A DNA stretch of 64,000 nt. Source: Armatimonadota bacterium (lineage in GTDB: Bacteria > Armatimonadota > Fimbriimonadia > Fimbriimonadales > Fimbriimonadaceae). The translations under genes were made by a program, and so were the position numbers. The notes under the pieces are model-generated. The model did not search any database and had not been told where the DNA came from. It was given only the letters and a program-made list of their open reading frames with translations. Location of the stretch: positions 27,178 through 91,177 of the forward strand of contig JAFDWX010000007.1 in NCBI GenBank assembly GCA_018268255.1, read 5' to 3'. Below, in pieces: positions 574 through 18,370 of this stretch; positions within the stretch are counted from its first letter, which is position 1, and every line of letters begins with the position of its first letter.

Positions 574-1431
574 TTAGGCCCTGCGGCGACGGCGAGCGAG
601 ACCGGCCACGCCGACTGCGAGCGCGATCATCGTTGCCGGCTCCGGAACAACTCGAGCGGCGGCGATACCGCGAATCTGGATTGCGGTCCCATCCGATCCC
701 GCCCCGTAAGGACCAATCGAGGTGATGGCCGTTCCTGCTGCATTTACCCAAGCCAAACTGTTAAGCCTAGTCAAAAACAGCTTCGATTCATCGCCCTTCC
801 AAGCATGGTCGTAATCGACATCATTGCCAGCAAAGCTGTAGATATTGGCACCGTAGTTACTGGATGAATAAACTCCAAATGGATTGATCAGTTTGTTGCG
901 TTGCCACCCAGCGTTGAAGTTATCATCTACGAGGTTGAGGTCGCCGCTACCGTCTAGGAAGAGATTGTCTCCGTCGGTCATGCCAGTTGCGGCATTATTG
1001 GCGATGAGCCCATAGCTGTTATTCAATAGCGCGAGCTTTCCGCTAAAGAAGCCGCCGTTGCCGTAGCTGACGACAAGTCCGCCGTGGCCCCCCGAGTACT
1101 CAACGCCTTCGAAGAAGTTGGTAGGAATTCCGGTCGAACCCACTACAGTTCCGGTCATCGCAACAGGGTCGATTTCGACTAGCTGCGATTGAAAAGCCGT
1201 CATCGTTTGCACGGTGACAAACTTATTCGTTGTGGGATTGTAGGTCAGGCCGGATGTATTAATGCTTCCATTGCTGCTGAAGCTAAAAAGTGCTGTCGCA
1301 GCACCTGTTGTCGTGTTGATTTGGTAGAAGGTGTCGAGTGTACTGCCGTGGGACACGCCATAAAGATCATCGGCGACTGCGCTGCCACACAAAGCGAAAA
1401 GAAGTGATGAGAGGAATAGTGTTTTTTTCAT
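574..1431 (-). CDS. PEP-CTERM sorted exported protein
   Basis: This is an exported protein of 285 aa. The chosen ATG at 1431 starts a classic Sec signal (MKKTLFLSSLLFALCGSAVA, cleavage before DD); an in-frame upstream start at 1494 would only bury it. The body is rich in Gly, Thr and Asn and reads like a beta-propeller or sheet repeat (GLTYNPTTNKF, DGDNLFLDGSGDL). The C-terminus carries the tripartite PEP-CTERM sorting signal: VPEPAT, a hydrophobic helix (MIALAVGVAGLA) and an arginine cluster (RRRRRA). Such proteins are recognised by an exosortase and are thought to reach the envelope or extracellular matrix. No exosortase gene is in the window. The specific function is unknown. Confidence 0.88.
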   Translation of the reverse strand: MKKTLFLSSLLFALCGSAVADDLYGVSHGSTLDTFYQINTTTGAATALFSFSSNGSINTSGLTYNPTTNKFVTVQTMTAFQSQLVEIDPVAMTGTVVGSTGIPTNFFEGVEYSGGHGGLVVSYGNGGFFSGKLALLNNSYGLIANNAATGMTDGDNLFLDGSGDLNLVDDNFNAGWQRNKLINPFGVYSSSNYGANIYSFAGNDVDYDHAWKGDESKLFLTRLNSLAWVNAAGTAITSIGPYGAGSDGTAIQIRGIAAARVVPEPATMIALAVGVAGLARRRRRA

Positions 1432-1464
1432 TGGATTTCTTGGGCGCCCCGCCCTTTGGTCCAT

Positions 1465-1486
1465 ATTGTTAGAACACCTTAACAAT
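1465..1486. promoter_or_regulatory. Inverted repeat upstream of the PEP-CTERM gene
   Basis: ATTGTTA (1465-1471) and TAACAAT (1480-1486) form a perfect 7-bp dyad with an 8-bp spacer, about 35 bp upstream of the chosen start codon. The geometry suits a dimeric repressor or activator site. A GGGCGCCC palindrome (1442-1449) lies between it and the start. No regulator gene is adjacent, so the role is inferred from position only. Confidence 0.3.
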
Positions 1487-1572
1487 GTGACCAAGTCTCA
1501 AAAATTGCGGTCTGTACGCTGAGGCCAGGTTCAACGCAATTATTTATGCTTGGGACTTTTGGCGAAAACCAG

Positions 1573-1610
1573 CAAAAAATAGAGGTACTGACAACTCTTG
1601 TCAGCACCTC
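1573..1610 (-). terminator. Rho-independent terminator of the VOC gene
   Basis: Read on the minus strand, GAGGTGCTGACA and TGTCAGTACCTC form a 12-bp stem with one mismatch and a 5-base loop, followed immediately by TATTTTTT. It lies just downstream of the stop codon of the VOC-family gene (1638). This is a textbook intrinsic terminator. Confidence 0.8.
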
Positions 1611-1637
1611 GCCTGAACCTCAATTTGGTTTGGAAAA

Positions 1638-2114
1638 TTACGAGGAACTTGCAGATGCGTAAGCAGCTTCGAGTCCGGCAACATCCAGTTTCACCATCTC
1701 CATCATGGCGGCCATCACGGCATTGCGTTGGGCCGGATTTCCCGACTTCATCAGTTCATCCATTCTCGCGGGATTGATCTGCCACGAAAAGCCCCACTTG
1801 TCCCGGAGCCAGCCGCATTGGACAGGCTCCCCACCATCCGCAATCAGGGCATCCCAAATCCGATCAAGTTCTTCTTGAGTGCTGCACGTGACCGTAAACG
1901 AATAGCTGTCCGTTGCACCTGGTGCTCCGTTTGCATCCATCGCGGTGTACTCCGTGCCGCCCAGCCTGAACTGGATAATCGACACCACCTCGCCTCCGGG
2001 CACGTCGATCCTCTCGATTTCATTGATCGCGCTGTCGTCGATGAGCGATGTGTAAAGGCGGGTCGCCTCTTCGGCACCGCTGGCGAACCAAAGGAATGGC
2101 TTGGCACTGGTCAT
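1638..2114 (-). CDS. VOC-superfamily (PhnB/3-demethylubiquinone-type) protein
   Basis: A 158-aa single-domain protein of the vicinal oxygen chelate fold. It matches the PhnB-like group often labelled '3-demethylubiquinone-9 3-methyltransferase' by old annotation: it opens with KPFLWFASGAEEATRLYTSL, has an FRLGGTEYTAMDANG strand, and ends in the WLRDKWGFSWQINPARMDEL segment with a helical tail. The family usually binds a metal or small molecules; the substrate cannot be read from sequence. It is a single-gene unit with its own terminator and is convergent with nothing. The start is the only ATG preceding the first beta strand. Confidence 0.85.
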   Translation of the reverse strand: MTSAKPFLWFASGAEEATRLYTSLIDDSAINEIERIDVPGGEVVSIIQFRLGGTEYTAMDANGAPGATDSYSFTVTCSTQEELDRIWDALIADGGEPVQCGWLRDKWGFSWQINPARMDELMKSGNPAQRNAVMAAMMEMVKLDVAGLEAAYASASSS

Positions 2115-2212
2115 GCTCAGAATTTACCTGCCACACATACTGGGAACGTGCCCCCGGTTGAATCATTGCCGTTATTGAGGCAGGAAGACGGTTCCAGTGC
2201 CAAGATAACGCA

Positions 2213-3139
2213 GTGCTCAAGTGGTTCAAGCCCAAGACCGCCCGCCTCAGCGTTGCCTACGACCATATCCTCGGGACCTCGTGCGAGTTCCACATCACAG
2301 GCGAAAGCCACCAGGTCTGCCAACAAGCAGTCGATCTCGCACTCAGCAAGATCGACGAGCTTGAGGCCATATTCTCGGTCTTCCGGCCCGATAGCGAATT
2401 TCAACGTTGGCAGCAAACGCTTGAAAAGCCAACTGAAGTGTCGATGGATCTCGCTCATGTCCTGCGAAAGGCGGAGCACTACCGACAGATTTCAAATAAC
2501 GCTTTCTTGCCTATTGCTGATTCCGTTCGCGACCTGTGGAAGGCGAACCCGGAGCAACCCAGACTGAGCGGAGACGAGCCGTTGTGGACTGTGGACCCCA
2601 ACCACCCCATCGCCACAAGGCACACCGACCTTCCTGCCAGCCTCAACGCTATCGCAAAGGGACACATCGTGGATCGTGCTGCCGAGGTCGCCCACGGCGT
2701 TTCGGGCATTCTGCAGGTGATGGTCAACATCGGCGGTGAAATCCGCCATATCGGAGAGGGGCATGTGGACGTTAGCGTGGCCGACCCACAGCGGGATGCC
2801 GAAAACGCTGATCCGCTCTGCCGGATTCGACTTTCAAACGAGGGAATGGCCACAAGTGGTGGGTATCGACGAGGGTTCAGTCACCAGGGACAAGAATGGT
2901 CCCACATCTTCGATCCCATCTCCGGAAAGCCGGCTCCGAGGGAAACGAGTGCCTCTGTCATCGCCCGCACAACGCTCGACGCAGACGCCATCGCGACAAT
3001 TTTGAGCGTTCTCCCGCAAGAACAGGGAGAATTTTGGGCAAGCACTCTGAACAACGTGGGATACTTCGTCGTTATTGCCCCGGGTTGTTCAACGTCGAAT
3101 GACTACTGGGACCAGAAGATCCTTCCGCCAACGCCATGA
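2213..3139 (+). CDS. apbE: ApbE-family FAD:protein FMN transferase, no export signal
   Basis: 308 aa. ApbE moves FMN from FAD onto a threonine or serine of a target protein. Family hallmarks are present: the FRPDSEFQRW region (57-66), NAIAKGHIVDR (145-155), TSGGYRRG (214-221), HIFDPISGKP (231-240) and the metal-site segment TTLDADAIAT (253-262). Most ApbE proteins are periplasmic lipoproteins or Sec-exported. Here the N-terminus is plain and soluble from a GTG start, and the in-frame sequence upstream back to the previous stop holds no signal peptide. The next gene overlaps it by 4 bp and encodes a Tat-exported DUF2271 protein. This suggests cytoplasmic flavinylation before folded export (inference). 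Confidence 0.9.
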   Translation: MLKWFKPKTARLSVAYDHILGTSCEFHITGESHQVCQQAVDLALSKIDELEAIFSVFRPDSEFQRWQQTLEKPTEVSMDLAHVLRKAEHYRQISNNAFLPIADSVRDLWKANPEQPRLSGDEPLWTVDPNHPIATRHTDLPASLNAIAKGHIVDRAAEVAHGVSGILQVMVNIGGEIRHIGEGHVDVSVADPQRDAENADPLCRIRLSNEGMATSGGYRRGFSHQGQEWSHIFDPISGKPAPRETSASVIARTTLDADAIATILSVLPQEQGEFWASTLNNVGYFVVIAPGCSTSNDYWDQKILPPTP

Positions 3140-3732
3140 ATCAGGAAACCGCTCCCCCGCACTCGCGCCGTAGCTTTCTCAAGCAACTCGGCAGTCTCGC
3201 GCTCATGCTCGCCGCTCCGTCGCTTCTCGCCAAAGCTCCAGCCAAAAAAGCTGCTAAGTGGGATATCCACTATGAAGCGCTGATCTCGCTGAGCATCGCG
3301 GAGCAGGAAGGGTTTCGCACGCACCGACCCTATGTGGCAGTGTGGGTCGAGGACGCTAATGGAAAGACGATCCGGACGCTGAGCCTGTGGGTCCAAACAG
3401 AGCGGCGAGGACCCAAGTGGATTCCAGACCTCCGGCGCTGGTTCCGAGGCGAAGAAGACCGGAGAACCGCGGACGGTGGAGACATGGTTACGACAATCTC
3501 CAGCGCCACACGTCAAGCGGGCAAATACTCTCTTGTTTGGAACGGCAAGAACGACAAAGGCGCCCTCGTCGACCAAGGCGATTACAACATCTGCATCGAA
3601 GCGGTCCGCGAGCATGGCACCTATCAGCTGATCCGCGAAAAAGTGAGCTTCGGGAAGAAGGTTTTCAAGCAGAACTTCCAGGGCAATCAGGAGATCGACG
3701 GAGCCTCAGTTGAATTCCGAAAGAAAGCCTGA
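3136..3732 (+). CDS. Tat-exported DUF2271 protein, probable flavinylation target
   Basis: 198 aa. The N-terminus is a Tat signal (SRRSFLKQLG at 10-19, then a hydrophobic run ending near ALAK-type residues 30-36). The rest matches DUF2271: AVWVEDANGKTIRTLSLWV (68-86) and a C-terminal FlgD/Ig-like half (GKYSLVWNGKNDKG, DYNICIEAVREHGTYQL). Between them, residues 119-125 read TTISSAT, where family members from memory often show a D-x-x-S-G-A-T sequence, the ApbE acceptor motif. Thr125 would be the FMN-carrying residue. The start overlaps apbE by 4 bp (ATGA), and the 3' end overlaps the PepSY gene by 23 bp. The role as an extracytoplasmic flavin carrier is inferred. Confidence 0.8.
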   Translation: MNQETAPPHSRRSFLKQLGSLALMLAAPSLLAKAPAKKAAKWDIHYEALISLSIAEQEGFRTHRPYVAVWVEDANGKTIRTLSLWVQTERRGPKWIPDLRRWFRGEEDRRTADGGDMVTTISSATRQAGKYSLVWNGKNDKGALVDQGDYNICIEAVREHGTYQLIREKVSFGKKVFKQNFQGNQEIDGASVEFRKKA

Positions 3733-4333
3733 AGGTCACCGGCCCAGGCCGTTTAAAATACGACTCCACCATTGGCTCCGGTGGCTGCACCTATACACGT
3801 CCCTGTTCTCGCTGATGACGGTGCTGTTTTTCGCGCTCACGGGCATCACGCTTAATCATCCGGAATGGACATTTGGCGGAAAGCCGATACGGACGGTGGT
3901 GCGCGGCAAACTCGATCCGGGATTTGCTCAAGGTGAAAAGGTTGATTGGCTGAAAGTCGTGGAGCAACTTCGTCGCGACCAGCCCGTGAAAGGCTCTGCA
4001 GTCGATATGCGAGTGGATGGAGACGAGGGAAGCCTCTCGTTCAAATCGCCAGGGTCGGTTTCGGAGTGTTTCTTCAAGCTGGAAAATGGCGATTACGAGA
4101 TGTCTATCAGCGCACAGGGATGGCTTGGCGTGATGAACGACTTGCATCGAGGGCGTGATTCAGGCTCCAATTGGGGCTGGCTGATCGACGTAAGCGGGGT
4201 GTTTTTGAGCCTGCTCTCGGTAACCGGGCTCGGCATTCTTTTCTATCTCAAAAAGTCGCGCGTGGCTGGCCTCATTGTTGGGTCCGTAGGTTTGGCAATC
4301 ATCCTTTTGTTGGGTTACCTGGCCTCGCGATAA
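3710..4333 (+). CDS. PepSY-associated membrane protein
   Basis: 207 aa with a TTG start preceded by GGAG. There are three membrane segments: about 27-47 (YTSLFSLMTVLFFALTGITL), about 155-178 (a WLIDVSGVFLSLLSVTGLGI-type helix) and about 186-205. A roughly 100-residue extracytoplasmic domain lies between the first two. Histidines at the first-helix edge (LHHWLRWLHLY) and in the NDLHRGRDSG motif just before the second helix match PepSY_TM proteins, which are thought to pass electrons across the membrane in ApbE-linked systems. It ends the apbE-DUF2271-PepSY operon and probably reduces or oxidises the flavinylated DUF2271 partner. Confidence 0.82.
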   Translation: MNSERKPEGHRPRPFKIRLHHWLRWLHLYTSLFSLMTVLFFALTGITLNHPEWTFGGKPIRTVVRGKLDPGFAQGEKVDWLKVVEQLRRDQPVKGSAVDMRVDGDEGSLSFKSPGSVSECFFKLENGDYEMSISAQGWLGVMNDLHRGRDSGSNWGWLIDVSGVFLSLLSVTGLGILFYLKKSRVAGLIVGSVGLAIILLLGYLASR

Positions 4334-4498
4334 CCGATGTCCTAAGTGGTAAATTGGTTCGCAAGGTGTGGCCCACGCCTCCTCCCTCCAAGTTGGGAAA
4401 GTACTCGATTCGTGCCGGGTTTCGATAGTTTTGTGGACTTTGTAGACGAACCACGCATGCGGAGGGATTGCGGATGAGGTTCGTCGCATGAGGTTCAA

Positions 4499-5212
4499 AT
4501 GATGAAACTATCTGCTCCAATTTTCCAACTTAAACGCCAAGCTAGACTGCTCGCCCGAGAGAAATCCATCGCCCTCCATGAGGCCCTTGACACGATTGCG
4601 CAACGCGAAGGGCTCGCCACCTGGAGCCACCTCGCCTCGGCCTATTCCAAAGATTCACCGGCAATCAGGCTCTACCGCACCATCAGGCCCGGAAGCCTTG
4701 TTCTGATTGCAGCCCGTCCAGGTCAGGGAAAGACGCTCATGGGGCTGGAACTGGCTCTGATCGCCATGAAAGGCGGTCACAAAAGCGTTTTCTTTACGCT
4801 GGAATACACCCAGCAAGAGTGTCTCGAACGGTTCAAATCCATTGGACAGGAGGTCGAACCCTTTGGTTCGCTCTTCACTTTTGATGGATCGGACGATCTG
4901 TGTGCGGACTACATCATACGGGCTCATCCAAATCCGACAGCGGGCACCATGATGGTGGTCGACTACCTTCAGTTGCTGGACCAACGCCGCGAAAATGCCG
5001 ACCTTTCCACGCAGGTTAACCTTTTGCACAGCTACGCGCGAGATTTCGGTGTCGTTCTGGTTTTCCTCTCACAGATTGATCGGAGCTATGACCCCACCAC
5101 CAAGCCGTGCCCAGAATTCTCTGACTTGCGCCTGCCCAACCCGTTGGATCTCGAGCTATTCCAATGCGGTTGTTTCTTGCACGGGTCCGAGATGCAAATC
5201 GTGTCCCGCTGA
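4499..5212 (+). CDS. Stand-alone DnaB-C-like RecA-fold ATPase
   Basis: 237 aa. The core is a RecA-fold ATPase resembling the C-terminal domain of the replicative helicase DnaB: Walker A ARPGQGKT (72-79), an FFTLEYT strand after it, Walker B around MMVVDYLQLL (near 155-164), and an FLSQIDR motif like the DnaB SQLSR motif. The N-terminal 50 residues (LKRQARLLAREKSIALHEAL, then EGLATWSHL) are not the DnaB primase-binding domain but a short helical segment. The end has an unusual DLRLPNPLDLELF motif. It is too short for a normal helicase and stands alone, with no primase or phage genes nearby. I recall a conserved family of this length called 'DNA helicase', but its function is not established. 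Confidence 0.7.
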   Translation: MMKLSAPIFQLKRQARLLAREKSIALHEALDTIAQREGLATWSHLASAYSKDSPAIRLYRTIRPGSLVLIAARPGQGKTLMGLELALIAMKGGHKSVFFTLEYTQQECLERFKSIGQEVEPFGSLFTFDGSDDLCADYIIRAHPNPTAGTMMVVDYLQLLDQRRENADLSTQVNLLHSYARDFGVVLVFLSQIDRSYDPTTKPCPEFSDLRLPNPLDLELFQCGCFLHGSEMQIVSR

Positions 5213-5285
5213 GGGATAACCACAACCTCTCCCCAGCGGGCACCGATTAGGGATAGCGCAAGGGGCGGAGTGATAGACTGGTTCC

Positions 5286-6089
5286 ATGTCGCTCCTCCCC
5301 TTGCTGATTGCTGCTGCTCTCCATCTGCAAGCACCGCCTGCACCGACAACCTACGACTTCGTGCCGAACATCCCGTACCGAGCGAGCAATGGAGACAAGC
5401 TCATCGAAAAGCAGTGTCGGCTGGATTTGTACGTCCCGAAGAGCACTAAAGATTTCCCAACGATCGTGTGGTTCCATGGTGGTGGCTTAACCGGTGGCCA
5501 AAAAGAGATTCCCACGCGCTTGAAGAACCAAAACGTGGCAGTTGTCGGTGCTGAGTATCGGCTGAGCCCTACTGTCAAGGCGCCAACTTACATCGAGGAT
5601 GCGGCTGCCGCAGTCGCGTGGACTGTCCAAAATATCGCCAAATACGGAGGTTCGACCAAGAAGATCTTTATCAGTGGACACTCCGCCGGGGGATATCTGG
5701 CCAGTATGGTCGTATTGGACAAGAGGTGGTTGAAGCCGTATGGTATCGACCCGGATTCCTTTGCCGGACTGGTGCCATTCAGCGGTCAGTCCATCACGCA
5801 TTTCACCATTCGCAAAGAGCGTGGGATTTCCGACAAACAGCCGGTGATCGACGATCTAGCACCAGTTTTTCACGTCCGCAAAGATGCTCCTCCGATTTTG
5901 CTGCTATCTGGGGACCGAAACAAGGAACTCCTGGGCCGCTATGAAGAATCAGCGTACTTTTGGAGGTTGCTGAAGGAAGTGGGCCATCCCAATGTTCAAC
6001 TCTTGGAACTCCAAGGGTTTGATCATGGCGGAATGATCGATCCCGGAATGCCGCTTCTCCTTGAGTTCGTTCGCGGTGCGAGTTCCTAG
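5286..6089 (+). CDS. Alpha/beta hydrolase (carboxylesterase/lipase-like)
   Basis: 267 aa with a short Sec signal (SLLPLLIAAALHLQA). It has the hormone-sensitive-lipase/BD-FAE type layout: oxyanion motif HGGG (64-67), nucleophile elbow GHSAGG with Ser133, and a catalytic His in GFDHGGM near the C-terminus. The acid is probably the Asp in LLLSGDRN. It likely hydrolyses small carboxylic esters in the periplasm; the substrate is not predictable. It is a monocistronic gene on the plus strand, 60 bp upstream of the aldo/keto reductase. Confidence 0.87.
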   Translation: MSLLPLLIAAALHLQAPPAPTTYDFVPNIPYRASNGDKLIEKQCRLDLYVPKSTKDFPTIVWFHGGGLTGGQKEIPTRLKNQNVAVVGAEYRLSPTVKAPTYIEDAAAAVAWTVQNIAKYGGSTKKIFISGHSAGGYLASMVVLDKRWLKPYGIDPDSFAGLVPFSGQSITHFTIRKERGISDKQPVIDDLAPVFHVRKDAPPILLLSGDRNKELLGRYEESAYFWRLLKEVGHPNVQLLELQGFDHGGMIDPGMPLLLEFVRGASS

Positions 6090-6149
6090 ATTCCCAGTGA
6101 ATTTGAACTGCATAGCATGAGGTTTGATTGAATTCAGTATCCTGAAACC

Positions 6150-8541
<2,392 letters not shown>

Positions 8542-8550
8542 TTTCTGGAA

Positions 8551-9567
8551 TCAAGTATTGCCGAGTGCCTTAATGGCTTGTTCAAACGAACCTTGGAATG
8601 GGACAGTTGAATCGAGTTGTTGAACCCTTTGCAACATAGAAAGTTGGCCATGATTTTCCATATCTAACACCAGGCAGGAACCCTGATCAGATGACGCAAC
8701 TTCGAGATAACGGGGCGAAGGAGTATTGTAGCACGTGTCCTCGAACCTATGGACTCGAGCACCATCTCCGCAACTCGTCAAGTGCATGTTAGCAATCCAT
8801 GAGAAATACCCTCCACATTGCGAATATGCATCTGTTTCCTCGAGAAGCGCTGCAAGTTCAGCGTTAAGGGCGTGCCCTGTTTCAATGGGTGGGAACCAGT
8901 CAAACACTGTCACTGAGCAATCATCTAGAGTTGCATCCACATCGGCATCCAGAAAGTCCAAAAATGCCTCGCCCGAGTCCTGCAAAGAAAGTAATATTCG
9001 ATGACCTACTTCAGTTCGGCACAAGCCGAATCGAGCAACAACTGGTTTGGATCTTTTCAGCAGGTTCGCGCACCGACCGAGAATCGTTGTAGTTTGAAAC
9101 TCGATTCTCCTCATTCCACAAGTTCGGATTCGGCGTGCTCTTTTGAGTCCTGCGATTTTTGCGACTTCCGGGCATAAATAGTTTGGTGTAGAAGTCTGCT
9201 TGGCAAGCCACCCAAGCAAGTGCCATATCGTTGGAGCTAAGTACTCAATCGACATCTTCTGTGGATATTCGATCTCGTACGCGCAAGCTTCTCCTGAATC
9301 CTTTATGGCATAACCGGCGAAAATGTCGGAGATGCCTATAAAGTGCCATCCTGGATCCAGCGGTATCAGATCAATATCATCCCCGATGTTGGGTTCAAAA
9401 CAATCAAACTCGGTTTGGAGTGATCCATATGTCCGATAAAACTCGTGCATCGCCACTACTCTCCCGAGGGCCTCTGGATTGTCCGGCGGCAGTTTGGTAA
9501 CGTGCCACCGCTTCGCGGCGATCTCTCTATCAATGAGTTTGATACAGTCCTGAACTTCAACGTCCAT
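8551..9567 (-). CDS. Two-domain immunity-like protein (A+B fusion)
   Basis: 338 aa, function not established. The N-terminal 130 residues resemble the neighbouring 158-aa protein: PGWHFIGISDIFAGYAI and the block LAPTIWHLLGWLAKQ versus SAPSIWHYVAHLIIFTKQ. The C-terminal 200 residues resemble the 222-aa protein at 10665: FLDFLDAD versus FFDFLDGD, GGYFSWI versus KGYFEYL, and LVLDMENHGQ versus LMLDMENQGS. The gene looks like a fusion of two immunity-type domains. It is last in the minus-strand array below the RHS toxin, 6 bp after the previous gene. A role in toxin neutralisation is inferred from context. No signal peptide is seen, so it should be cytoplasmic. Confidence 0.6.
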   Translation of the reverse strand: MDVEVQDCIKLIDREIAAKRWHVTKLPPDNPEALGRVVAMHEFYRTYGSLQTEFDCFEPNIGDDIDLIPLDPGWHFIGISDIFAGYAIKDSGEACAYEIEYPQKMSIEYLAPTIWHLLGWLAKQTSTPNYLCPEVAKIAGLKRARRIRTCGMRRIEFQTTTILGRCANLLKRSKPVVARFGLCRTEVGHRILLSLQDSGEAFLDFLDADVDATLDDCSVTVFDWFPPIETGHALNAELAALLEETDAYSQCGGYFSWIANMHLTSCGDGARVHRFEDTCYNTPSPRYLEVASSDQGSCLVLDMENHGQLSMLQRVQQLDSTVPFQGSFEQAIKALGNT

Positions 9568-9573
9568 GATGTG

Positions 9574-10050
9574 CTAACTTGATTCGGCGACTGCCTGTTT
9601 GGTGAATATGATGAGATGGGCGACGTAGTGCCAGATGGACGGAGCCGAAGTCTCTAGGTGAGCCGAGCACCTTGCCGGATTAAATAGATCACCTGTCTCT
9701 CCTGTCTCCTGGTTCATTGCAATCCCAAGTGCATACTCACTATCACCGATATAGATCCAGGGTGGCGGCATCTCTGCCACGGGATCCTTCACGTATTTCC
9801 AATGGATCTGATCGTCTGGTCCTGCCAGAAACTGAAAAGTCTTGAAGAAATCCGCATTTGGTGCCGTGAGGTTCCCTACGTCCGGGCACTCCTCCGTCTG
9901 CGGTTCAGCAGTCCAGATCCCAGTTGACACCTCGTCCAGCACCATAGCCTTGGCCTCTTTCCACGTTAGGTGATTGGCCAAGCCGGCCTCTGGACCATTG
10001 ACGATTCTCGGATCGGGCCGTGTTCCAAAGATGGATTTGAGTATGTTCAT
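9574..10050 (-). CDS. SUKH-like putative immunity protein (domain A)
   Basis: 158 aa, cytoplasmic, no recognised motif of catalysis. The pattern resembles SMI1/KNR4 (SUKH) immunity folds: a PPPWIYIGDSEYALGIAM strand pair, an acidic NQETGETGDLF turn and a C-terminal helix (APSIWHYVAHLIIF). The same block occurs in the N-terminal part of the next gene's 338-aa product. The start is ATG at 10050 without an obvious ribosome binding site. It sits in the five-gene array after the RHS toxin gene. SUKH assignment is by feel of the motif spacing, not by search. Confidence 0.55.
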   Translation of the reverse strand: MNILKSIFGTRPDPRIVNGPEAGLANHLTWKEAKAMVLDEVSTGIWTAEPQTEECPDVGNLTAPNADFFKTFQFLAGPDDQIHWKYVKDPVAEMPPPWIYIGDSEYALGIAMNQETGETGDLFNPARCSAHLETSAPSIWHYVAHLIIFTKQAVAESS

Positions 10051-10133
10051 AACCGAATTTCTAGATGGCCGCTGAATGCTATTTGCTACTCACTTTATCG
10101 GCGATCCATACTGGTTACGAGAGAGAAACCGGC

Positions 10134-10598
10134 CTATTCTGTATCTAATTCCAGCAGTGTCAGAAAATCTCCGAATGAATCACAAACATCCCAAAACTCT
10201 GGATCATCCGGGTCACTTTCGTGGTCATGAATTTTGATCGTCGAACTGCCGTTCTCGTCGTAGACGAAAAGGAAATTGTCTCCGATATCACTCCTCGCAA
10301 AGATGATTGAGTTGGCAACATCGTGCGAATCATTCGCTTCGACAAGGCCCATATCATCCAGGGTTGGACCAATCCCGTAGATCCCTGTGACATCGCTGAA
10401 CTCGTCGCCATAGCCTGGATCAACGGGACACATCACCATTTGTTTAAAATAGCAACCGTCTGAAATTTGGGTAACGAATTCAACGAAGTCGTCCGGTAAC
10501 TTTTTACGCAGTTGGCTCTCAGCTTCTCTCACGCGGTCAATATCTACAGGCGGTGCCTTTCGCGTAACTTCAAGAATGGTCTCTGGCAAAGTCTTCAT
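10134..10598 (-). CDS. SMI1/KNR4 (SUKH) family immunity protein
   Basis: 154 aa. The sequence follows the SUKH plan: an N-terminal helix (RVREAESQLRKKLPDDFVEFV), ISDGCYF, GDNFLFVYDENGSSTIKIHDH, and a C-terminal DSFGDFLTLL helix. SUKH proteins neutralise diverse nuclease toxins of polymorphic systems. The start at 10598 is favoured over an in-frame upstream codon at 10637 because a perfect AGGAGGT (reverse of 10610-10616) lies upstream at about 11-base spacing. It belongs to the array under the RHS toxin, flanked by two unrelated immunity-like genes. Confidence 0.75.
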   Translation of the reverse strand: MKTLPETILEVTRKAPPVDIDRVREAESQLRKKLPDDFVEFVTQISDGCYFKQMVMCPVDPGYGDEFSDVTGIYGIGPTLDDMGLVEANDSHDVANSIIFARSDIGDNFLFVYDENGSSTIKIHDHESDPDDPEFWDVCDSFGDFLTLLELDTE

Positions 10599-10664
10599 GT
10601 GTTTCGTGTACCTCCTACGGTCGAAATGATTTACCACTGTTCGACCAGCTATGCTCGCTAGATA

Positions 10665-11333
10665 TCAATCGAGTTCCTCATAGAGCATATTGAGTCTCTC
10701 CATAGCATCCACAAAGTCCCCATCGACCCGTTCAAGTGTGTCAAAATCATCATGGTCTTGCAGTATTACGTAACTACCTTGGTTTTCCATGTCGAGCATG
10801 AGGTAGCTCGGCCTGGGGCTATCTGCCACAATAATATAACGTTCCCCCAGCAGATCGTGGTAAATGGTTCTTCCATAGGGCCACACCTTAACTGAAGCGT
10901 CCGAAGGCAACGGTATTGGATTACTCAGATATTCAAAATATCCTTTGGAATTGGCATGCACTGACCCTGAGCACAGAAGTCGGCACGCATCGTGTGGCAA
11001 CAGTTTTGGTTCTGACGCAGGCGGTAGCATATCGAGCAAAAAGGTTTGTGGCGGATCGACCAAACCATGGCTATCTCCATCAAGAAAATCAAAAAAGCTC
11101 TGTTCGGTACTGCTATTGTACAGAATTGCCCTCGACCCGTTGTCAAACGTTATCAGCGCATATGTTATTGTACTCCTTTTCCCTCGGAAGCGGGTCAATA
11201 GCGAGCGCACCATCGAACCTGACAAGTGCTCAGTTATTCTATACTTCCCTGTCTGACTAAATCCTCCGCAATATTCACCTAACTGTCTCAGCACGGCTCT
11301 GCACAATTCAATCTCCGCGTCAGTCAATCTCAC
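10665..11333 (-). CDS. Putative immunity protein (domain B)
   Basis: 222 aa with a GTG start preceded by AGGGGA. No family was recognised. It shares its plan with the C-terminal half of the 338-aa protein at 8551: a DGSRAILY-type strand set, FFDFLDGD, a KGYFEYL strand and LMLDMENQGS near the end. There is no signal peptide or membrane segment. Position in the array below the RHS toxin, and the presence of a second copy fused to another immunity-like domain, suggest an immunity role. It could be a different small-ligand-binding family. Confidence 0.5.
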   Translation of the reverse strand: MRLTDAEIELCRAVLRQLGEYCGGFSQTGKYRITEHLSGSMVRSLLTRFRGKRSTITYALITFDNGSRAILYNSSTEQSFFDFLDGDSHGLVDPPQTFLLDMLPPASEPKLLPHDACRLLCSGSVHANSKGYFEYLSNPIPLPSDASVKVWPYGRTIYHDLLGERYIIVADSPRPSYLMLDMENQGSYVILQDHDDFDTLERVDGDFVDAMERLNMLYEELD

Positions 11334-11413
11334 TTTGATCCCCTGCTGTTCTTCTTCATTACACGGCAGTCATCCTATGAGTTCCGGCTTACCTCAACGC
11401 CGTGTGGTCTTAG

Positions 11414-12133
11414 TCAAATACGCAAGCCAGACCCTTCCATCTTCTGCTTCATCTTGTTACCAAGGGATTGCATTCGATTTATGATAGCATTAACATCCTC
11501 GTATCCAACGATGCGCAAAGCATATTCGTACACCTCAGTGCTTACAATCTGTTCAGCGGAAAGGTTCTCGGCGAGGTCAATAGCCCAAGCCCAATAGTTC
11601 ATCTCTGGCTGCTGCAATACCGCGACGATCGCTTCGCAAGGCGCAAAAGCGTGTTGTTTTGTTACAAGATGAAAAGCTTCATCAGAATCTAGGAACACAA
11701 ACGCCTTGGAAAAAAACTGGCTCTTAGATGCCGGAGTTTGCTTCGATTCGAGGACTGTTCTGACAAATTCCTCGGCACCAACTATTCGGGAAGGCCTTAC
11801 TAGATTAGCAATGAGCATCCTAAGGTGAACGTTCGGGTTCCGTGAAAAAATGTCCTGAATGATCTGGGAGGGGATTTTGAGTTTGGTCGCAATTAATACA
11901 TTTAGCAGCATTTCGAAATGGAAGACTGGAGGATACTCCTTGGTCAATTCTTCGTGAACAAACTGAATTACGGCCCTATTCTTGTACACCTTAGACTTGT
12001 CATACTGAAAATACTCTTCGTCCACCTTGTCGCCTATTAGCTGCGAAAAATTCCGCAGCATATTGTGGTACTTGACTTCTGATGGTGGGTTGGTGTCTGC
12101 AGTTCTCCCAATCTGATCCCTAAGCATGTGCAT
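11414..12133 (-). CDS. Unknown helical protein, coupled to the RHS toxin; probable cognate immunity
   Basis: 239 aa, not recognised. The sequence is mostly alpha-helical with HEAT-like character (LIANLVRPSRIVGAEEFV, FHLVTKQHAFAPCEAIVAVL). The start codon overlaps the toxin stop codon by one base (TAATG), and an AAGGA ribosome binding site lies inside the toxin 3' end at 7-base spacing. The two proteins are therefore made together, the usual arrangement for a toxin and its own immunity protein. The coding sequence looks more AT-rich than its neighbours, consistent with recent exchange. No homology supports the function. Confidence 0.55.
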   Translation of the reverse strand: MHMLRDQIGRTADTNPPSEVKYHNMLRNFSQLIGDKVDEEYFQYDKSKVYKNRAVIQFVHEELTKEYPPVFHFEMLLNVLIATKLKIPSQIIQDIFSRNPNVHLRMLIANLVRPSRIVGAEEFVRTVLESKQTPASKSQFFSKAFVFLDSDEAFHLVTKQHAFAPCEAIVAVLQQPEMNYWAWAIDLAENLSAEQIVSTEVYEYALRIVGYEDVNAIINRMQSLGNKMKQKMEGSGLRI

Positions 12134-15100
12134 TATCTCATCCTTATTCGACGTATGTCAATGAGAGGGTGGTTCGCCAAAGTCTTTGCCAATGTTGTAC
12201 CGCTGTCAACGATGAGGCAAAGGCGGCGGCCCAAGTTCTCGGCGATTTTTATTTCAGCTCTGATCTGCTTTGTCAGGCTCAAGTATCTTACGTTCTTGAC
12301 TTCGACAATATGTGTCGCGGTCACTGAGTCTGGAATCACCTTAACGATAACGCCGTTGAGCATGGTCGCAAACTTCTCGGTGTTCTTGACAATTCCTGCT
12401 GCTCGCTCACCTTCCATGCCAAGCTGCCAGGCAGTTTTTGCAATCTTGGCTTCGGAGACTGTGCCTTTGATCCATTGGCCAAGCCGCAACAGTGAGGGGG
12501 ATTCAGAAGCACCGGCGGTTGATACCACTGAAACCGTGAACCCAACAATTCTGCCACCAACATACTCACTTGAATTTGTCCGAACTCCGGCACCGTCGTA
12601 AACTTTGTCCCTAATCCACCGACCTGTACCGAAGGACATCTCGTCCCCCGCGCCAGCGCAAAAGTCCGAGAATCTGCGCTCCATTTCAGGGGTCAGCCAT
12701 TTGGGTGACCATGCGTACCAGGCCAAGTCCCCGCCAGCCGATGGGTCCAAGCCCAGCGGGTCGGCGAGACCGATGGGGTCTCCGGCGCAGTAAGCGTATT
12801 GGTTCAAGCCCCCGGCTTGCCCGATGGGGTCGCGGTTCAGAAACCGCCCATAAGCTGGATCATAGTAGCGATAGGTGCACAGGGAGAGCCCTGTTTCAGA
12901 GTCCCGGAGATACCCATGCTGAGCCTTGAAGCCAGCGTACGGATCAGTCGTCGCCACCGAAGAGCTGAACCCGCCATAGGCATCAGCAGAATGGTAGGAG
13001 AGTACTGAACCACCGGAATTCAGCCTGGAAGAAGTCGATCCCATAGGATCGAACATGTAAAAGGTCGAAGAGCCCGCCGTGCGACGGGAAACGAGGCCGG
13101 CCGCACCCCACGTGTTCACGGCACTAACCGCGCCAGTGCTATTCAGTTCCAGGATCGGAACGGCCCCATCGTAGATGTAGTAGGTGCGAGTCGACCCAGC
13201 TTGTTTCCACGCGCGCTTCCCGCCTGAGTCGTAGCCAGCAGTTAGGGAAGTTCCGAAAGATGTGGCGTGGTCATTTTCGGACCAAGCAACGGTCGATCCG
13301 GCATACTGGGTCGGGTTGCCATTGGCGTCGTAGCTGAATCCGGCCGCGGAAATCTGGTTCTTGGTGTTAAAGGTGCGGGTTCCGCCCTTAAATGTAGTCA
13401 GATTATCGGTCGCATCCAAGCCGTAGCTGTGCGTGTAGCCACCCATTCGGGTGCCGCTTTCCAGGGTAAGGCGTCCTCGAGTGTCATATTGGTATGCCAC
13501 TGAGCCGCCGTAGCTCGGCATCCCAGGAACGCTGACGCTGAATCCACTGAGATTCCCTTGGGCGTCGCGACTGATTCCTGTGTACGAGGAAATGACGCTT
13601 CCTCCCGAACCATAGTTGGTGAGTGATGTCAGCTCCGAGGCCGCATTCTGATTTAGGATCGAGTAGGCACCATTCGGTAGGTTGCTCTGCTCTAGCAGGT
13701 CGTTTTGGCGATAAACCCACGAACTGGCCTCTGAGTAAGGATTGGTGAGGCCGGTCAGCCGACCTCGCAGATCATAGGAGTAGGTGAAGCTTCCTGCCGG
13801 GGACGTGAGAGATGCTCTTGAACCATCGGCGTGGTATCCGTAACCCAAAGTCACTGCGGGCAGCCCCGTATAAGCTCGGGTTGCCGTCAGGAGCTGGTCA
13901 AGGTCTCCACGCGTGTAGGTTTCAGTTCCTTGCTCGTCGGTTAAGCCCTGTAGGCGACCAAGCGTGTCGTAGCTATACGTGACGTTAAGACCAGGAGCAG
14001 TGGGATGAACAACCTGTGTCAGGAGTCCATCCGGATCGCCGTAGACAAACTGCGTAACCTGTCCTTTCGGATCCGTCGTTTGCAGCAGTCTTCCGGCCGA
14101 GGAGTACGAGTCGTATGTCGTGGTTTCGCCCTGGAGCGATTCCGAAGCAAGGTAGCCCGCCGCCCCGTACGCATAGGACGTGGTTCGCCCCAGGCCGTCG
14201 GTAGTCGTGAGAAGCCTATTGTCTGCATCGTAGGTGGAACTGCTTGGCTCAGCATCGCCCGATACTCCAACTACTCGTCCCACCAAGTCGTAGGTTGGGA
14301 TGACCTGTTGAACCAATGCGCCCGATTCAGAAAAGAGCTTGGAAGCGCTTACCGGCCCTCCGGGATACAGATACTCCGTCGTAGACGTTTGCCTCCCCGC
14401 ACCGTTCTGCCCGGTTGCGGGGCGTTGGGTCTGCGTTACCTGGCCAGCGATGTTGTACGAGGTGTCGTACTGGTTGCCCAGACCGTCAAAGCTCGTCACC
14501 ACCCTTCCAAAAGAGTCGTATCGGTAGCGAGAAACCAAGCCGAGGTTGTCTTCCACTCGAATCGGCTGACCAAGGGCCGCAGCCTGGCTATAGCTCCCAT
14601 CCGTGGTGTAGTTAAAGGTCACAGTGCGGGTGGAGCCGGCGTTATTGCCCGGCCCAATTACGGTCAGGATATTGCCCAGCGAGTCATAGGTCAGAGTTCG
14701 AGTGACGGTTCCGGACCCGGTGGGGGAAGGTCCGGTAACCGTTTGGAGGAGACCTGAAGGCTCGTAGTAGGTGAATGTGGTTGCAGGATGCCCCGTTTCC
14801 TGCACAGAGACCAGCCGACCCATGGCATAGGTGCCGTAGTCGTAGGTGTAGGTGGTGACGATGCCTCGAGGCGTCGTAGTGGAAAGCAGATTGCCGTAGA
14901 CATCCCAGTTGTAAAGGGTCGTTTTGCCGTCACCATCTGTGACTTCGCTCGGCAGGTACGGCGCGTCGGCATCGCCGTACACTCTGGATTCGACCACCGT
15001 GGAGAGCGAACCGTCCGTACTCGAAGTCGGCATCATGTCCGAGTTCGAACTCACCTGGTACTTGTTGACGACATTGCCATTCGGGTCTTTTACAGTGACC

Positions 15101-17757
15101 CGGCGGGTCCCAGCAACCGGAACGCTATATTCACGCTTGTTGCCAAGAGCATCGGTTTGGCTCGAAATCTGACCGTTCGTAAGGTTGAAAGCAAAGGTTC
15201 TGGTGCTAAACCCAGTTCCGGTCGGCGAGATCTCTGAAATCGAGACGATCGGCTTCTCGTGGGATGCGCCAGTGGCGTAATACGAATAGGTTTGCCGAGT
15301 TGGGGGATTGGAGGTCCCTGTCGATACGATCTGGCTGCACCCAGTCAAAAATCCGGAGGTCCAATAGTAGGCAACAGTTCGGTTGTACCGATCCGCAACC
15401 GAAAGAATAACCGGTGAACTCCCTGTCTGCCGCGAGATGGTCAGCAGCGCCGTCCCGTTCTGGTCGTCGATTCGGCTTAATAATGCTGGGATCGCGGTAT
15501 ACGAAGGATTGGAATAGTAACTGAAGCTGATATAGTGACCCAGCCGATCGGTGAGTCGAACCAGTGGGTGAACCGCCCATGTGCCAGAACCAGTCACGTC
15601 GGGTCTCTGGACTTTGAAGCGCATCACCGTTTGACTCTTGTCCTCCACCTCCCACTGCCCGTAGGCGCAAGTCGAGTCGTACAGCCACCGGACAATGTAA
15701 GGTTGGCCGGCGGGCACCTGACAATTCACTACCGGATTGCCAGACGTAGGAACGCTGTTTGCGACCACCCTTGCCTGTGCCAGGTTAGGAAACCGAACGA
15801 GCTTCGGACCAGTGGTCAGGGCGATTGCTTCCGGCGTGACCGTGAAGCTCGCGGAGCGGTAGTTCACCACGCCATTGGACGACCATTTTCGGCGGATGAC
15901 ATACCCGGAACCCAGTGCCGCGCTGAGCGGAGTCCGAACTGTGAAGTCGTAGTTGCCCGTATCGAAGCTCGCCAGTCGCCATTCGCCAGGACTGTTGATG
16001 TCGGCAATCACCGTACCGTTGAGAGTCAAGTCCCAATAGGTGCCAAGGCTTGAGGGGCCAGGGGGAATGGTCCCATCGCTGCTGAGCTTGAGTTCAGAAA
16101 CACGTCGACACTCACGCTCCACGATGATTTGGAAATCACCGACGATGGTGGTGGATCCAACCGTGCTTTTCCAGGTTGCCAGGTAGTCCGTACCCAAAGC
16201 CGCGCCTATAGGCGGTGTGACCGTACAACTGCTGCTGCTTCGGACCAGTACCCAACCGTTAGTCGCGGAGGAAGTGGCGACCACCGTCGTGCCCTTATTG
16301 ATCTGCCAAGTCAGAGTGCCAGTGAGGGTTCCGGTTCCAGTAGTGGCCACCGTGACGACTCGGTTCGGCTTTGTGATCGGAATCTTGCGCGCACCTGGGT
16401 CGTAGACGTCGATGTTATAGCTCTGGGACCACCGAACTCCGAAGTCGATGTCGTTCCGGGCGTTCGGCTCGTTCCAGTCCTGCGTGACAGTGTTTGGAAA
16501 GCTGTGGTAATTCCGCGCCCACGCCACACTTGGCCCGACAGGATTGTAAACGGAAAGGTCAACGCCAGGGCTGAACGATTCCTCGCCAGTAGCCAGATTA
16601 ACTGGGTCACCATCGGTCGCTGGGTTTTGGCCTGCAAGGCCATGTGGGCTGGAACTACCCGTTCCGGGCCCGCAAACCGAGGTCGTCAAGATAGGAAGGA
16701 GCTGCGCCTGACCGCGCATCGCGGCCGCGATCGCTCCATTGACTGGCGCAGGGGTGAACACAACCTGTGGATGATTCGCAGCTAACACATCGGCGAAATC
16801 TCTTCCTTGGGGAGGTCCAAGGACTGATTCCAGCGTCGAGTAATCCACAGAGCCCGGTTTGGCAATCAGCAGATAGTGATCTGCATCCAGGGCTTCCCAT
16901 TGTTTCCAGGAGATTTTCGTCTTTGCGCCTGTGCCTCCGCATCCCGCGCAAGTGATTTCTAACCCCCGAGAATCCGCCGAGTAGACCGTGACAAACCGCC
17001 GATGTTCCACATGCGCGATCGCAGGTTTGGGTGCAGAGATGAGCGCAGCGGGAGTCAGAGTTACGGGCCATGATCCAAATCCCAGCGAGTTCACGCCCCG
17101 CTCAAGACCGCGGAGGTCGCTTCCGAATTCGGTCCTTCCGGTTACCCGACTCAGGTTCTCAAGCGAAATACTGCAGCCATGTGTGGCAAGAATGGCTTGG
17201 AGGCTCTTGACTCCGCATTCCGGATCACCGACTTCAGGCGATTCAAGGCCCTTGGACCGGTTCTCTTCACAAGCTTTGAGGCGGCTCTCCGCTTGGTCTG
17301 CCCAGCGAGCAATCGCAGATCGTTGAGCCAAATCGACATTGCACAATCTGGCACAGTGCTTCGCTAACCCGTCGAGTAACTGGCTGTATTGCCCGCGTCG
17401 ATACGAGACTTCAACTTGAAGCTGGATGACCTTGGCCCAAAGGGGTCCCTCAATATTATCGGCAGACAAGAGATAGTCTAACTTAGCCGCTACTGGCTTT
17501 AATAAGCGATATTGTTGGAATTCACTTCTCGCCGCTCGATAGATTGCCTCTTGTCTTTCAGAGCGACTTCTGGAACGATCATTCGCAATACAATAGGCAT
17601 CTAGAACCTCTCTCAGAGCCGAATGACTTGGAGCGATGGATTCTGCGGCAACCTGAAACTCTCTCTCAGCGAGGACTCGAGGGACATCCCAAACCGGCAT
17701 CGCCCCAATCACTTTCGTTGAAACAATCGCCAAACATAAGACTATCAAACGCCACAT
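12133..17757 (-). CDS. RHS/YD-repeat polymorphic toxin with REase-type C-terminus
   Basis: 1874 aa. Order of parts: Sec-like signal (1-20); helical region (30-165); a C39-peptidase-like domain (about 178-305) with Cys181 in ECGVKSLQ and AHVEHRRFVTVY, where the catalytic His and Asp are not cleanly placed; a DUF6531-like entry (DGDPVNLATGEESF); many YD repeats such as YDSLGRL-type units (about 800-1600); the RHS core end (RFLNRDPIGQAGGLNQYAY ... DPLGLDP); a pretoxin stretch (AGDEMSFGTGRWIRD); and a variable 200-residue tip. The tip has Asp1810 (IPD), Glu1819 and Lys1821 (VEVKN), a PD-(D/E)XK pattern like Tox-REase-7. It is presumably a DNase delivered into competitors. An immunity-like array follows directly. 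Confidence 0.88.
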   Translation of the reverse strand: MWRLIVLCLAIVSTKVIGAMPVWDVPRVLAEREFQVAAESIAPSHSALREVLDAYCIANDRSRSRSERQEAIYRAARSEFQQYRLLKPVAAKLDYLLSADNIEGPLWAKVIQLQVEVSYRRGQYSQLLDGLAKHCARLCNVDLAQRSAIARWADQAESRLKACEENRSKGLESPEVGDPECGVKSLQAILATHGCSISLENLSRVTGRTEFGSDLRGLERGVNSLGFGSWPVTLTPAALISAPKPAIAHVEHRRFVTVYSADSRGLEITCAGCGGTGAKTKISWKQWEALDADHYLLIAKPGSVDYSTLESVLGPPQGRDFADVLAANHPQVVFTPAPVNGAIAAAMRGQAQLLPILTTSVCGPGTGSSSPHGLAGQNPATDGDPVNLATGEESFSPGVDLSVYNPVGPSVAWARNYHSFPNTVTQDWNEPNARNDIDFGVRWSQSYNIDVYDPGARKIPITKPNRVVTVATTGTGTLTGTLTWQINKGTTVVATSSATNGWVLVRSSSSCTVTPPIGAALGTDYLATWKSTVGSTTIVGDFQIIVERECRRVSELKLSSDGTIPPGPSSLGTYWDLTLNGTVIADINSPGEWRLASFDTGNYDFTVRTPLSAALGSGYVIRRKWSSNGVVNYRSASFTVTPEAIALTTGPKLVRFPNLAQARVVANSVPTSGNPVVNCQVPAGQPYIVRWLYDSTCAYGQWEVEDKSQTVMRFKVQRPDVTGSGTWAVHPLVRLTDRLGHYISFSYYSNPSYTAIPALLSRIDDQNGTALLTISRQTGSSPVILSVADRYNRTVAYYWTSGFLTGCSQIVSTGTSNPPTRQTYSYYATGASHEKPIVSISEISPTGTGFSTRTFAFNLTNGQISSQTDALGNKREYSVPVAGTRRVTVKDPNGNVVNKYQVSSNSDMMPTSSTDGSLSTVVESRVYGDADAPYLPSEVTDGDGKTTLYNWDVYGNLLSTTTPRGIVTTYTYDYGTYAMGRLVSVQETGHPATTFTYYEPSGLLQTVTGPSPTGSGTVTRTLTYDSLGNILTVIGPGNNAGSTRTVTFNYTTDGSYSQAAALGQPIRVEDNLGLVSRYRYDSFGRVVTSFDGLGNQYDTSYNIAGQVTQTQRPATGQNGAGRQTSTTEYLYPGGPVSASKLFSESGALVQQVIPTYDLVGRVVGVSGDAEPSSSTYDADNRLLTTTDGLGRTTSYAYGAAGYLASESLQGETTTYDSYSSAGRLLQTTDPKGQVTQFVYGDPDGLLTQVVHPTAPGLNVTYSYDTLGRLQGLTDEQGTETYTRGDLDQLLTATRAYTGLPAVTLGYGYHADGSRASLTSPAGSFTYSYDLRGRLTGLTNPYSEASSWVYRQNDLLEQSNLPNGAYSILNQNAASELTSLTNYGSGGSVISSYTGISRDAQGNLSGFSVSVPGMPSYGGSVAYQYDTRGRLTLESGTRMGGYTHSYGLDATDNLTTFKGGTRTFNTKNQISAAGFSYDANGNPTQYAGSTVAWSENDHATSFGTSLTAGYDSGGKRAWKQAGSTRTYYIYDGAVPILELNSTGAVSAVNTWGAAGLVSRRTAGSSTFYMFDPMGSTSSRLNSGGSVLSYHSADAYGGFSSSVATTDPYAGFKAQHGYLRDSETGLSLCTYRYYDPAYGRFLNRDPIGQAGGLNQYAYCAGDPIGLADPLGLDPSAGGDLAWYAWSPKWLTPEMERRFSDFCAGAGDEMSFGTGRWIRDKVYDGAGVRTNSSEYVGGRIVGFTVSVVSTAGASESPSLLRLGQWIKGTVSEAKIAKTAWQLGMEGERAAGIVKNTEKFATMLNGVIVKVIPDSVTATHIVEVKNVRYLSLTKQIRAEIKIAENLGRRLCLIVDSGTTLAKTLANHPLIDIRRIRMR

Positions 17758-18007: not shown

Positions 18008-18370
18008 TCAACCCACGACGCTAAACGGCGTCATATCTCGGACGATCTCGTTCCGCTCATTAAGAAGAACCATTTTGGGAATGATGGGCTCATCCGAAAG
18101 ATCGAACGCGGCAATGATCACGCGATCACCGGCGTTGAAGAATCTCGCCGCACCACCGTTCAGGCCTATTACACCTGTGGCACCTGAAAACGCGTAAGTC
18201 GTGATTCGGGATTCATGATCGACCGCCCAGACGTGCACAAGCTCGCCATCTTTCAGGCCAACGGCTTCCATAAGGTCCCGCCCAATCTCGATACTGCCGA
18301 CGTACTCTGGGTTGGCATACGTCACATGGCCGTGATGGAGTTTTGCTTTAAGGAGCTGTGAGAGACGCAT
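18008..18370 (-). CDS. panD: Aspartate 1-decarboxylase
   Basis: 120 aa. PanD makes beta-alanine from aspartate for pantothenate and CoA, using a pyruvoyl group created by self-cleavage between Gly and Ser. The site is visible as YVGSIEI (Gly25-Ser26). Other family marks are the N-terminal KAKLHHGHVTYAN, the YAFSGATGVIGLNGGAARFF block and DRVIIAAF. The 5' end overlaps ccmF by 23 bp, so it is translated from the same message as the cytochrome maturation genes, an unrelated function sharing an operon. Confidence 0.97.
   Translation of the reverse strand: MRLSQLLKAKLHHGHVTYANPEYVGSIEIGRDLMEAVGLKDGELVHVWAVDHESRITTYAFSGATGVIGLNGGAARFFNAGDRVIIAAFDLSDEPIIPKMVLLNERNEIVRDMTPFSVVG

What the first reader, a model, noticed from the sequence alone, without database searches (positions are those of the whole stretch)
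8551..17757. RHS polymorphic toxin with a REase-type tip and a five-gene immunity-like array
The sequence shows an RHS/YD-repeat protein of 1874 aa whose last 200 residues are a variable tip with IPD-x8-E-x-K. It is followed on the same strand by five small cytoplasmic genes with short gaps. Polymorphic toxin loci with several immunity genes are known, but this set combines a SUKH gene, an unknown coupled gene and a novel duplicated domain. It could be a poly-immunity locus against rival toxins.
Basis: partly seen in the sequence, partly recalled or inferred. Interest (0 to 1): 0.75.

Follow-up and report, generated by a model that had tools for sequence, protein, structure and literature searches.

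The report
RHS nuclease-type toxin with immunity-like array
A bacterium carries a large exported-type toxin gene that ends in a nuclease-type domain, followed by five small genes that most likely protect it from this and other toxins; the design is already known, but two of the small-gene domains match no described family.

Summary
On the minus strand an 1874-aa RHS protein (12133-17757) ends in a domain scoring above Pfam's cut-off for Tox-REase-7. Five small genes follow, gaps at most 83 bp. The first, c239, starts inside the toxin stop codon (TAATG). In relatives this slot mostly holds one HEAT-type family: 15 of 21 other places in the phylum and 8 of 10 contig loci. Zhang et al. 2012 already list HEAT repeats as immunity for Tox-REase-7. 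c239 itself is not shown to be HEAT: sequence tests fail. Gene 3 is SUKH. Genes 2, 4 and 5 carry two unclassified domains: gene 2 has D, gene 4 has E, gene 5 fuses E and D. No convincing relative of D or E was found outside this locus in the searches made. Best reading: toxin, coupled cognate immunity, then a small polyimmunity array ending in a fusion protein. A new member of a known kind; D and E are candidate new immunity families. Toxicity and protection are untested.

The parts
12133..17757 (-). RHS/YD-repeat polymorphic toxin, 1874 aa, with a signal-peptide-like start (by eye)
   Evidence: RHS_repeat PF05593 110 bits; RHS-associated core TIGR03696 70 bits over cut-off at aa 1593-1670
16951..17226 (-). 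Peptidase_C39-like domain, aa 178-269; Cys kept, His position is Arg, so probably not a working protease
   Evidence: PF03412 38.7 bits, cut-off 22; alignment to solved C39 transporters and to relatives
12178..12420 (-). Tox-REase-7 tip, aa 1780-1860, with PD...ExK
   Evidence: PF15649 52.1 bits; alignment with 16 relatives
11414..12133 (-). c239: coupled gene, probable cognate immunity by position
   Evidence: TAATG overlap; slot holds an immunity-type gene in relatives; no Pfam family at E <= 1
10665..11333 (-). d222: stand-alone domain D (match to f338 over aa 50-214)
10134..10637 (-). s167: SUKH-superfamily protein
   Evidence: PF14568 36.8 bits and PF09346 32.6 bits, both over cut-off
9574..10050 (-). 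e158: stand-alone domain E (match to f338 over aa 44-146)
8551..9567 (-). f338: fusion of E (aa 15-121, 9205-9525) and D (aa 171-335, 8563-9057); candidate polyimmunity protein
12132..12161 (-). promoter-like site TTGACA-18-GATAAT at the toxin/c239 junction
   Evidence: the only 11-of-12 match in the window, 0.18 expected; a pattern match, not evidence of function

Best explanation
An exported-type RHS polymorphic toxin carries a PD-(D/E)xK-type nuclease tip (Tox-REase-7). Its own cell is protected by the translationally coupled c239, which most likely binds and blocks the tip. The next four genes form a small co-oriented polyimmunity array: stand-alone D, a SUKH protein, stand-alone E and an E-D fusion. 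They most likely bind other toxin tips, from kin or rivals. Shown by sequence: gene order; family of backbone, tip and SUKH gene; the D and E pairs and the fusion; and that most relatives of the tip keep an immunity-type gene in the c239 slot. Inferred: export, nuclease activity, that c239 neutralises this tip, that D and E are immunity domains, and what they act against.
For: Tip and backbone families over cut-off. Of 21 other Tox-REase-7 places in 291 phylum genomes, 15 have one linked family as first downstream gene, 5 a second family, 1 none directly behind it; 8 of 10 contig loci have the first family, HEAT_2 over cut-off in 7 of 7 given to Pfam. TAATG coupling here, 4-nt overlap at 10 relatives. 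SUKH gene. E-D fusion beside stand-alone D and E. Tandem, same-strand, short gaps, no toxin remnant detected between the genes. Polyimmunity loci and proteins with these traits are described in PMC3482391 (section read).
Against: c239 is not linked to the HEAT family by sequence: 1.9 bits, at least 8 of 500 shuffles higher, hhalign probability under 1%; its model is poor (pLDDT 49.6). D and E fit no family and are not linked to SUKH above shuffles (13 and 19 of 60 shuffles as good or better). Described polyimmunity loci usually lack a toxin gene; this one is headed by one. No activity was tested.
Confidence: 0.68

Rival explanations
1. Layered immunity: two or more of the five genes act on this same tip, at different surfaces, as reported for Tdi5a and Tdi5b against the DNase Tde5.
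For: All five genes sit directly behind one toxin; dual immunity encoded downstream of one toxin is reported in PMC13392607 (abstract and passages).
Against: Runs of five small non-toxin genes were not seen at the other 28 Tox-REase-7 junctions tested, although several had little sequence left downstream, so the extra genes do not travel with the tip.
Confidence: 0.15
2. Fossil array: d222, s167, e158 and f338 are immunity genes left behind by earlier tips of this RHS gene, the old tips having been lost.
For: The same N-terminal backbone carries other tips in relatives (3 readable); array genes are mostly poorer in GC (0.45-0.53) than the toxin (0.56).
Against: No RHS-core or tip remnant found between the genes (RHS best E 1.7; best of 17 tips E 0.02). 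Fossil and polyimmunity readings overlap: retained genes could still protect.
Confidence: 0.2
3. D and E are not immunity domains but accessory proteins of the RHS toxin (chaperone, adaptor or processing factor).
For: No immunity family assigned to them in Pfam, NCBIfam or PADLOC.
Against: They alternate with a SUKH gene and show the stand-alone-plus-fusion pattern described for polyimmunity genes; adaptors usually lie upstream of the toxin (recalled).
Confidence: 0.15

Closest known systems
Tox-REase-7 polymorphic toxins with HEAT-repeat immunity (Zhang et al. 2012, PMC3482391, passages)
   Same: Tip family over Pfam cut-off; immunity-type gene directly downstream and coupled
   Different: c239 has no detectable HEAT signature
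Polyimmunity loci and polyimmunity proteins (PMC3482391, section read)
   Same: Tandem same-strand small genes with short gaps, a SUKH member, and a fusion of two domains that also stand alone
   Different: Headed by a toxin gene; three genes carry domains of no known family; phylum outside the four listed there for extended loci (proteobacteria, bacteroidetes, firmicutes, actinobacteria)
rAID orphan-immunity arrays of Bacteroidales (PMC12247911, abstract)
   Same: Array of immunity genes that includes SUKH domains
   Different: Attached to a toxin gene; no recombinase recognised by eye among neighbouring ORFs, neighbours not scanned by profile
Dual immunity Tdi5a/Tdi5b against Tde5 (PMC13392607, abstract and passages)
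   Same: More than one small gene directly behind one nuclease toxin
   Different: Tde5 is a beta-beta-alpha-metal DNase; that several genes here act on one tip is not shown

Membership tests
RHS polymorphic toxin | RHS/YD repeats and RHS-associated core | tested here: met
   PF05593 and TIGR03696 over cut-off
RHS polymorphic toxin | Variable C-terminal tip behind a shared backbone | tested here: met
   N-terminal part matched in 9 of 85 family genomes incl. own; one of these (G132) reads as an ABC transporter; 3 relatives with readable C-terminus have other tips
RHS polymorphic toxin | Export and toxicity | not testable with these tools
   signal-like start seen by eye only
Tox-REase-7 (PF15649) | Family score over curated cut-off | tested here: met
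   52.1 bits, cut-off 25
Tox-REase-7 (PF15649) | PD and ExK residues | tested here: met
   both present in the window; of 16 relatives 13 have PD and 15 ExK
Tox-REase-7 (PF15649) | Nuclease activity | not testable with these tools
   none
HEAT-repeat immunity of Tox-REase-7 (c239) | Gene directly behind and coupled to the toxin | tested here: met
   TAATG overlap
HEAT-repeat immunity of Tox-REase-7 (c239) | HEAT family score | tested here: not met
   no Pfam family at E <= 1; 1.9 bits to the relatives' profile, within shuffles
HEAT-repeat immunity of Tox-REase-7 (c239) | Helical-repeat fold | tested here: inconclusive
   14 helices but pLDDT 49.6; no Foldseek match at E <= 0.001, top rows armadillo-type and other helical chains, 14-3-3 among them
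SUKH superfamily (s167) | Family score over curated cut-off | tested here: met
   PF14568 and PF09346
SUKH superfamily (domains D and E) | Family or profile match | tested here: inconclusive
   no Pfam SUKH match at E <= 1; hhalign to a small SUKH profile not above shuffles; f338 model poor
Polyimmunity locus | Four or more tandem same-strand genes with short gaps | tested here: met
Polyimmunity locus | No toxin gene between the immunity genes | tested here: met
   at tblastn sensitivity
Polyimmunity locus | Members are immunity proteins | tested here: inconclusive
   one of five by family, one by position, three by context only
Polyimmunity locus | Usually without an associated toxin gene (usual, not strict) | tested here: not met
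   array begins at the toxin stop codon; hence 'array like a polyimmunity locus'

The most novel reading that the evidence does not exclude
D and E are two undescribed immunity families; their stand-alone copies beside the E-D fusion show a polyimmunity protein being assembled within one operon, in a phylum outside those listed for extended polyimmunity loci in the 2012 survey; and c239 is a further, highly diverged or unrelated, immunity type for Tox-REase-7.
Probability: 0.35. Interest if true: 0.45.

Novelty: new member of a known kind. Interest (0 to 1): 0.33.

Why it matters
If true, it adds an intact toxin-immunity system and two candidate immunity families, and a compact case in which single domains and their fusion lie side by side, so one could test whether fused immunity proteins block more toxins than single ones. 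Otherwise it is a typical polymorphic-toxin locus.

Tried and rejected
Relatives of c239, f338 and d222: at E <= 0.001 only the own genome among 291 phylum genomes. Profile of D at E <= 0.5: 29 of the 290 other genomes gave weak matches, best E 0.04, taken as chance. Profile of E at E <= 0.05: one match in another genome, E 0.007 in a 2764-aa frame, taken as chance for 291 genomes and not looked at further. Plasmids by tblastn: no match for any of the five small proteins; one Rhizobium plasmid for the tip. Genome contigs with D: 231 pattern matches, 0 confirmed; E and c239 were not scanned there. Viral contigs: E 26 and tip 76 pattern matches, 0 confirmed. Solved structures by sequence: chance-level rows only for c239, f338 and the tip; d222, e158 and s167 were not given.

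f338 model: pLDDT 42.2; Foldseek no match at E <= 0.001; VIA best Z 4.0. A Listeria chain, 2icg, appears at Z 2.5 over the D part (that it is a SMI1/KNR4 protein is recalled); not used. Sub-threshold hits set aside: DUF6748 on f338, DUF7191 and WsaF_C on d222, PDC-M16B on c239. A shared junction promoter was rejected: best scores at 18 relatives' junctions are 5-9 of 12. A SUKH link of D or E: not above shuffles. One search stopped with an error after three of eight planned comparisons; the rest were not rerun. One search uses a crude longest-ORF rule that hid the HEAT-type gene at L051 and L058; G077 and one G184 place were not given to it. The HEAT label rests on Pfam for seven contig proteins; the phylum proteins are tied to these through a profile, not by a Pfam run.

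Full report
What is there. On the minus strand lie an 1874-aa RHS protein and five small genes behind it, joined by a 1-nt TAATG overlap and gaps of 80, 27, 83 and 6 bp. The genome has 3.19 Mb in 9 contigs. That its phylum is Armatimonadota is my reading of a record title (an uncultured Chthonomonas contig, L059, that appears to be contig 673 of phylum genome G027).

The toxin. Pfam gives RHS repeats, Tox-REase-7 (52.1 bits, cut-off 25) and Peptidase_C39 (38.7 bits, cut-off 22); NCBIfam adds the RHS-associated core at aa 1593-1670. Against 16 relatives, the window tip keeps the PD and ExK residues; 13 of the 16 have PD and 15 have ExK, G027, G180 and G241 being the exceptions. The C39 part aligns with solved bacteriocin transporters, E 0.0013. 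In relatives with this N-terminus, L124, L125 and L130 keep both Cys and His, L127, L128 and L129 lack the Cys, and the His part of L126 was not covered; the window keeps Cys but has Arg for His. So it is probably not a working protease here. The N-terminal part matches in 9 of 85 family genomes, own one included; one of these, G132, reads as an ABC transporter. Three relatives have a readable C-terminus (L125, L126, L127), with other tips; four run off their contig or stretch.

The coupled gene. Tox-REase-7 occurs in 17 of 291 phylum genomes, 22 places with the own one. Of the 21 others the first downstream gene is one linked family at 15 places, a second family at 5 (G044, G241, G054, G082 twice), and at one G184 place nothing of 60 aa or more lies directly behind. 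Some of these toxin copies are broken, and the gene then lies up to 240 bp away. Ten further contig loci came from a scan with the tip, one of them the G027 contig again; 8 of 10 carry the first family, L050 and L054 do not, L054 ending 760 bp behind the toxin. Seven of these proteins were given to Pfam and 7 of 7 pass HEAT_2. At ten relatives the gene overlaps the toxin by 4 nt. Zhang et al. 2012 list HEAT repeats as immunity for Tox-REase-7 (passages). c239 holds this slot, but its sequence does not reach the family: best pairwise E 0.02, 1.9 bits to the profile with at least 8 of 500 shuffles higher, hhalign probability under 1%. A single-sequence model has 14 helices but pLDDT 49.6; its Foldseek list is led by armadillo-type and designed helical chains, with 14-3-3 chains among them, none at E <= 0.001. 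I call c239 the probable cognate immunity by position and do not file it as HEAT.

The array. s167 is SUKH. d222 and the C-half of f338 share domain D (51.7 bits); e158 and the N-part of f338 share domain E (14.3 and 14.8 bits); 0 of 1000 shuffles reach any of these. f338 is thus an E-D fusion of types that also stand alone beside it. Outside this locus no match to d222 or f338 passed E <= 0.001 in 291 phylum genomes, profiles of D and E gave only weak matches taken as chance, plasmids gave none, and a genome-contig scan with D confirmed none; that scan needs short conserved peptides, and E was not scanned there. D and E are not linked to SUKH above shuffles. No RHS or tip remnant was found in the array. 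Among 29 junctions tested, own one included, the run of five small non-toxin genes is seen only here; G180 also reaches five, but through RHS tails. Several junctions had under 1.1 kb left downstream.

Setting. The panD- and CcmF-like neighbours (names recalled) are kept side by side in 5 of 5 relatives' regions looked at, but none of the 5 shows the RHS or array proteins nearby at E <= 1e-4, so the locus is accessory. SUKH_6 occurs in 5 of 85 family genomes; one, G134, has four matches in one region. Array genes have 0.45-0.53 GC, the toxin 0.56.

Literature. PMC3482391: passages and the section on polyimmunity. PMC13392607: abstract and passages. PMC12247911: abstract. A search for papers with both 'Armatimonadetes' and 'polymorphic toxin' found 0; other name forms of the phylum were not tried.

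Verdict. The system is of a known kind: a tip family with immunity in the expected slot, then a small array like a polyimmunity locus. What is new is an uncharacterised member, two orphan domains with a clear stand-alone-plus-fusion pattern, and a phylum outside the 2012 list of extended loci.

Noticed in passing
12132-12161, minus strand: Promoter-like TTGACA-18-GATAAT at the toxin stop / c239 start, the only 11-of-12 match in the window (0.18 expected per window). Its start point would fall just inside c239, so it could serve the array without the toxin. 18 relatives' junctions do not share it.
   Followed up: partly
16951-17226, minus strand: C39-like domain at the N-terminus of the RHS toxin with the catalytic His position replaced by Arg; some relatives lack the Cys instead.
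   Followed up: partly
18008-18370 (-) and 33432-34004 (+): panD- and pyrE-like genes (names recalled, matched by eye) are neighbours in L094 and L097 but lie 15 kb apart on opposite strands here, so the RHS locus may sit at a rearrangement breakpoint.
   Followed up: no
L045, L046, L047, L048: A second family of genes behind Tox-REase-7 tips, linked by pairwise matches; the one member given to Pfam had no family at E <= 0.1.
   Followed up: partly
L126 (G113:C3): A relative of the RHS backbone with a GIY-YIG-like tip (by eye), followed by several small same-strand ORFs; three given to Pfam had no family at E <= 0.1. Possibly another array.
   Followed up: partly
L111 (G134:C15), 756-5569: Four SUKH_6 matches in one region of another genome of the family, with paralogous small genes between them.
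   Followed up: partly
L049 (G000:C3), 5048-9580: A second RHS-repeat protein in the same genome (1510 aa) with a cysteine-rich tail and an RHS-core fragment repeated downstream.
   Followed up: no
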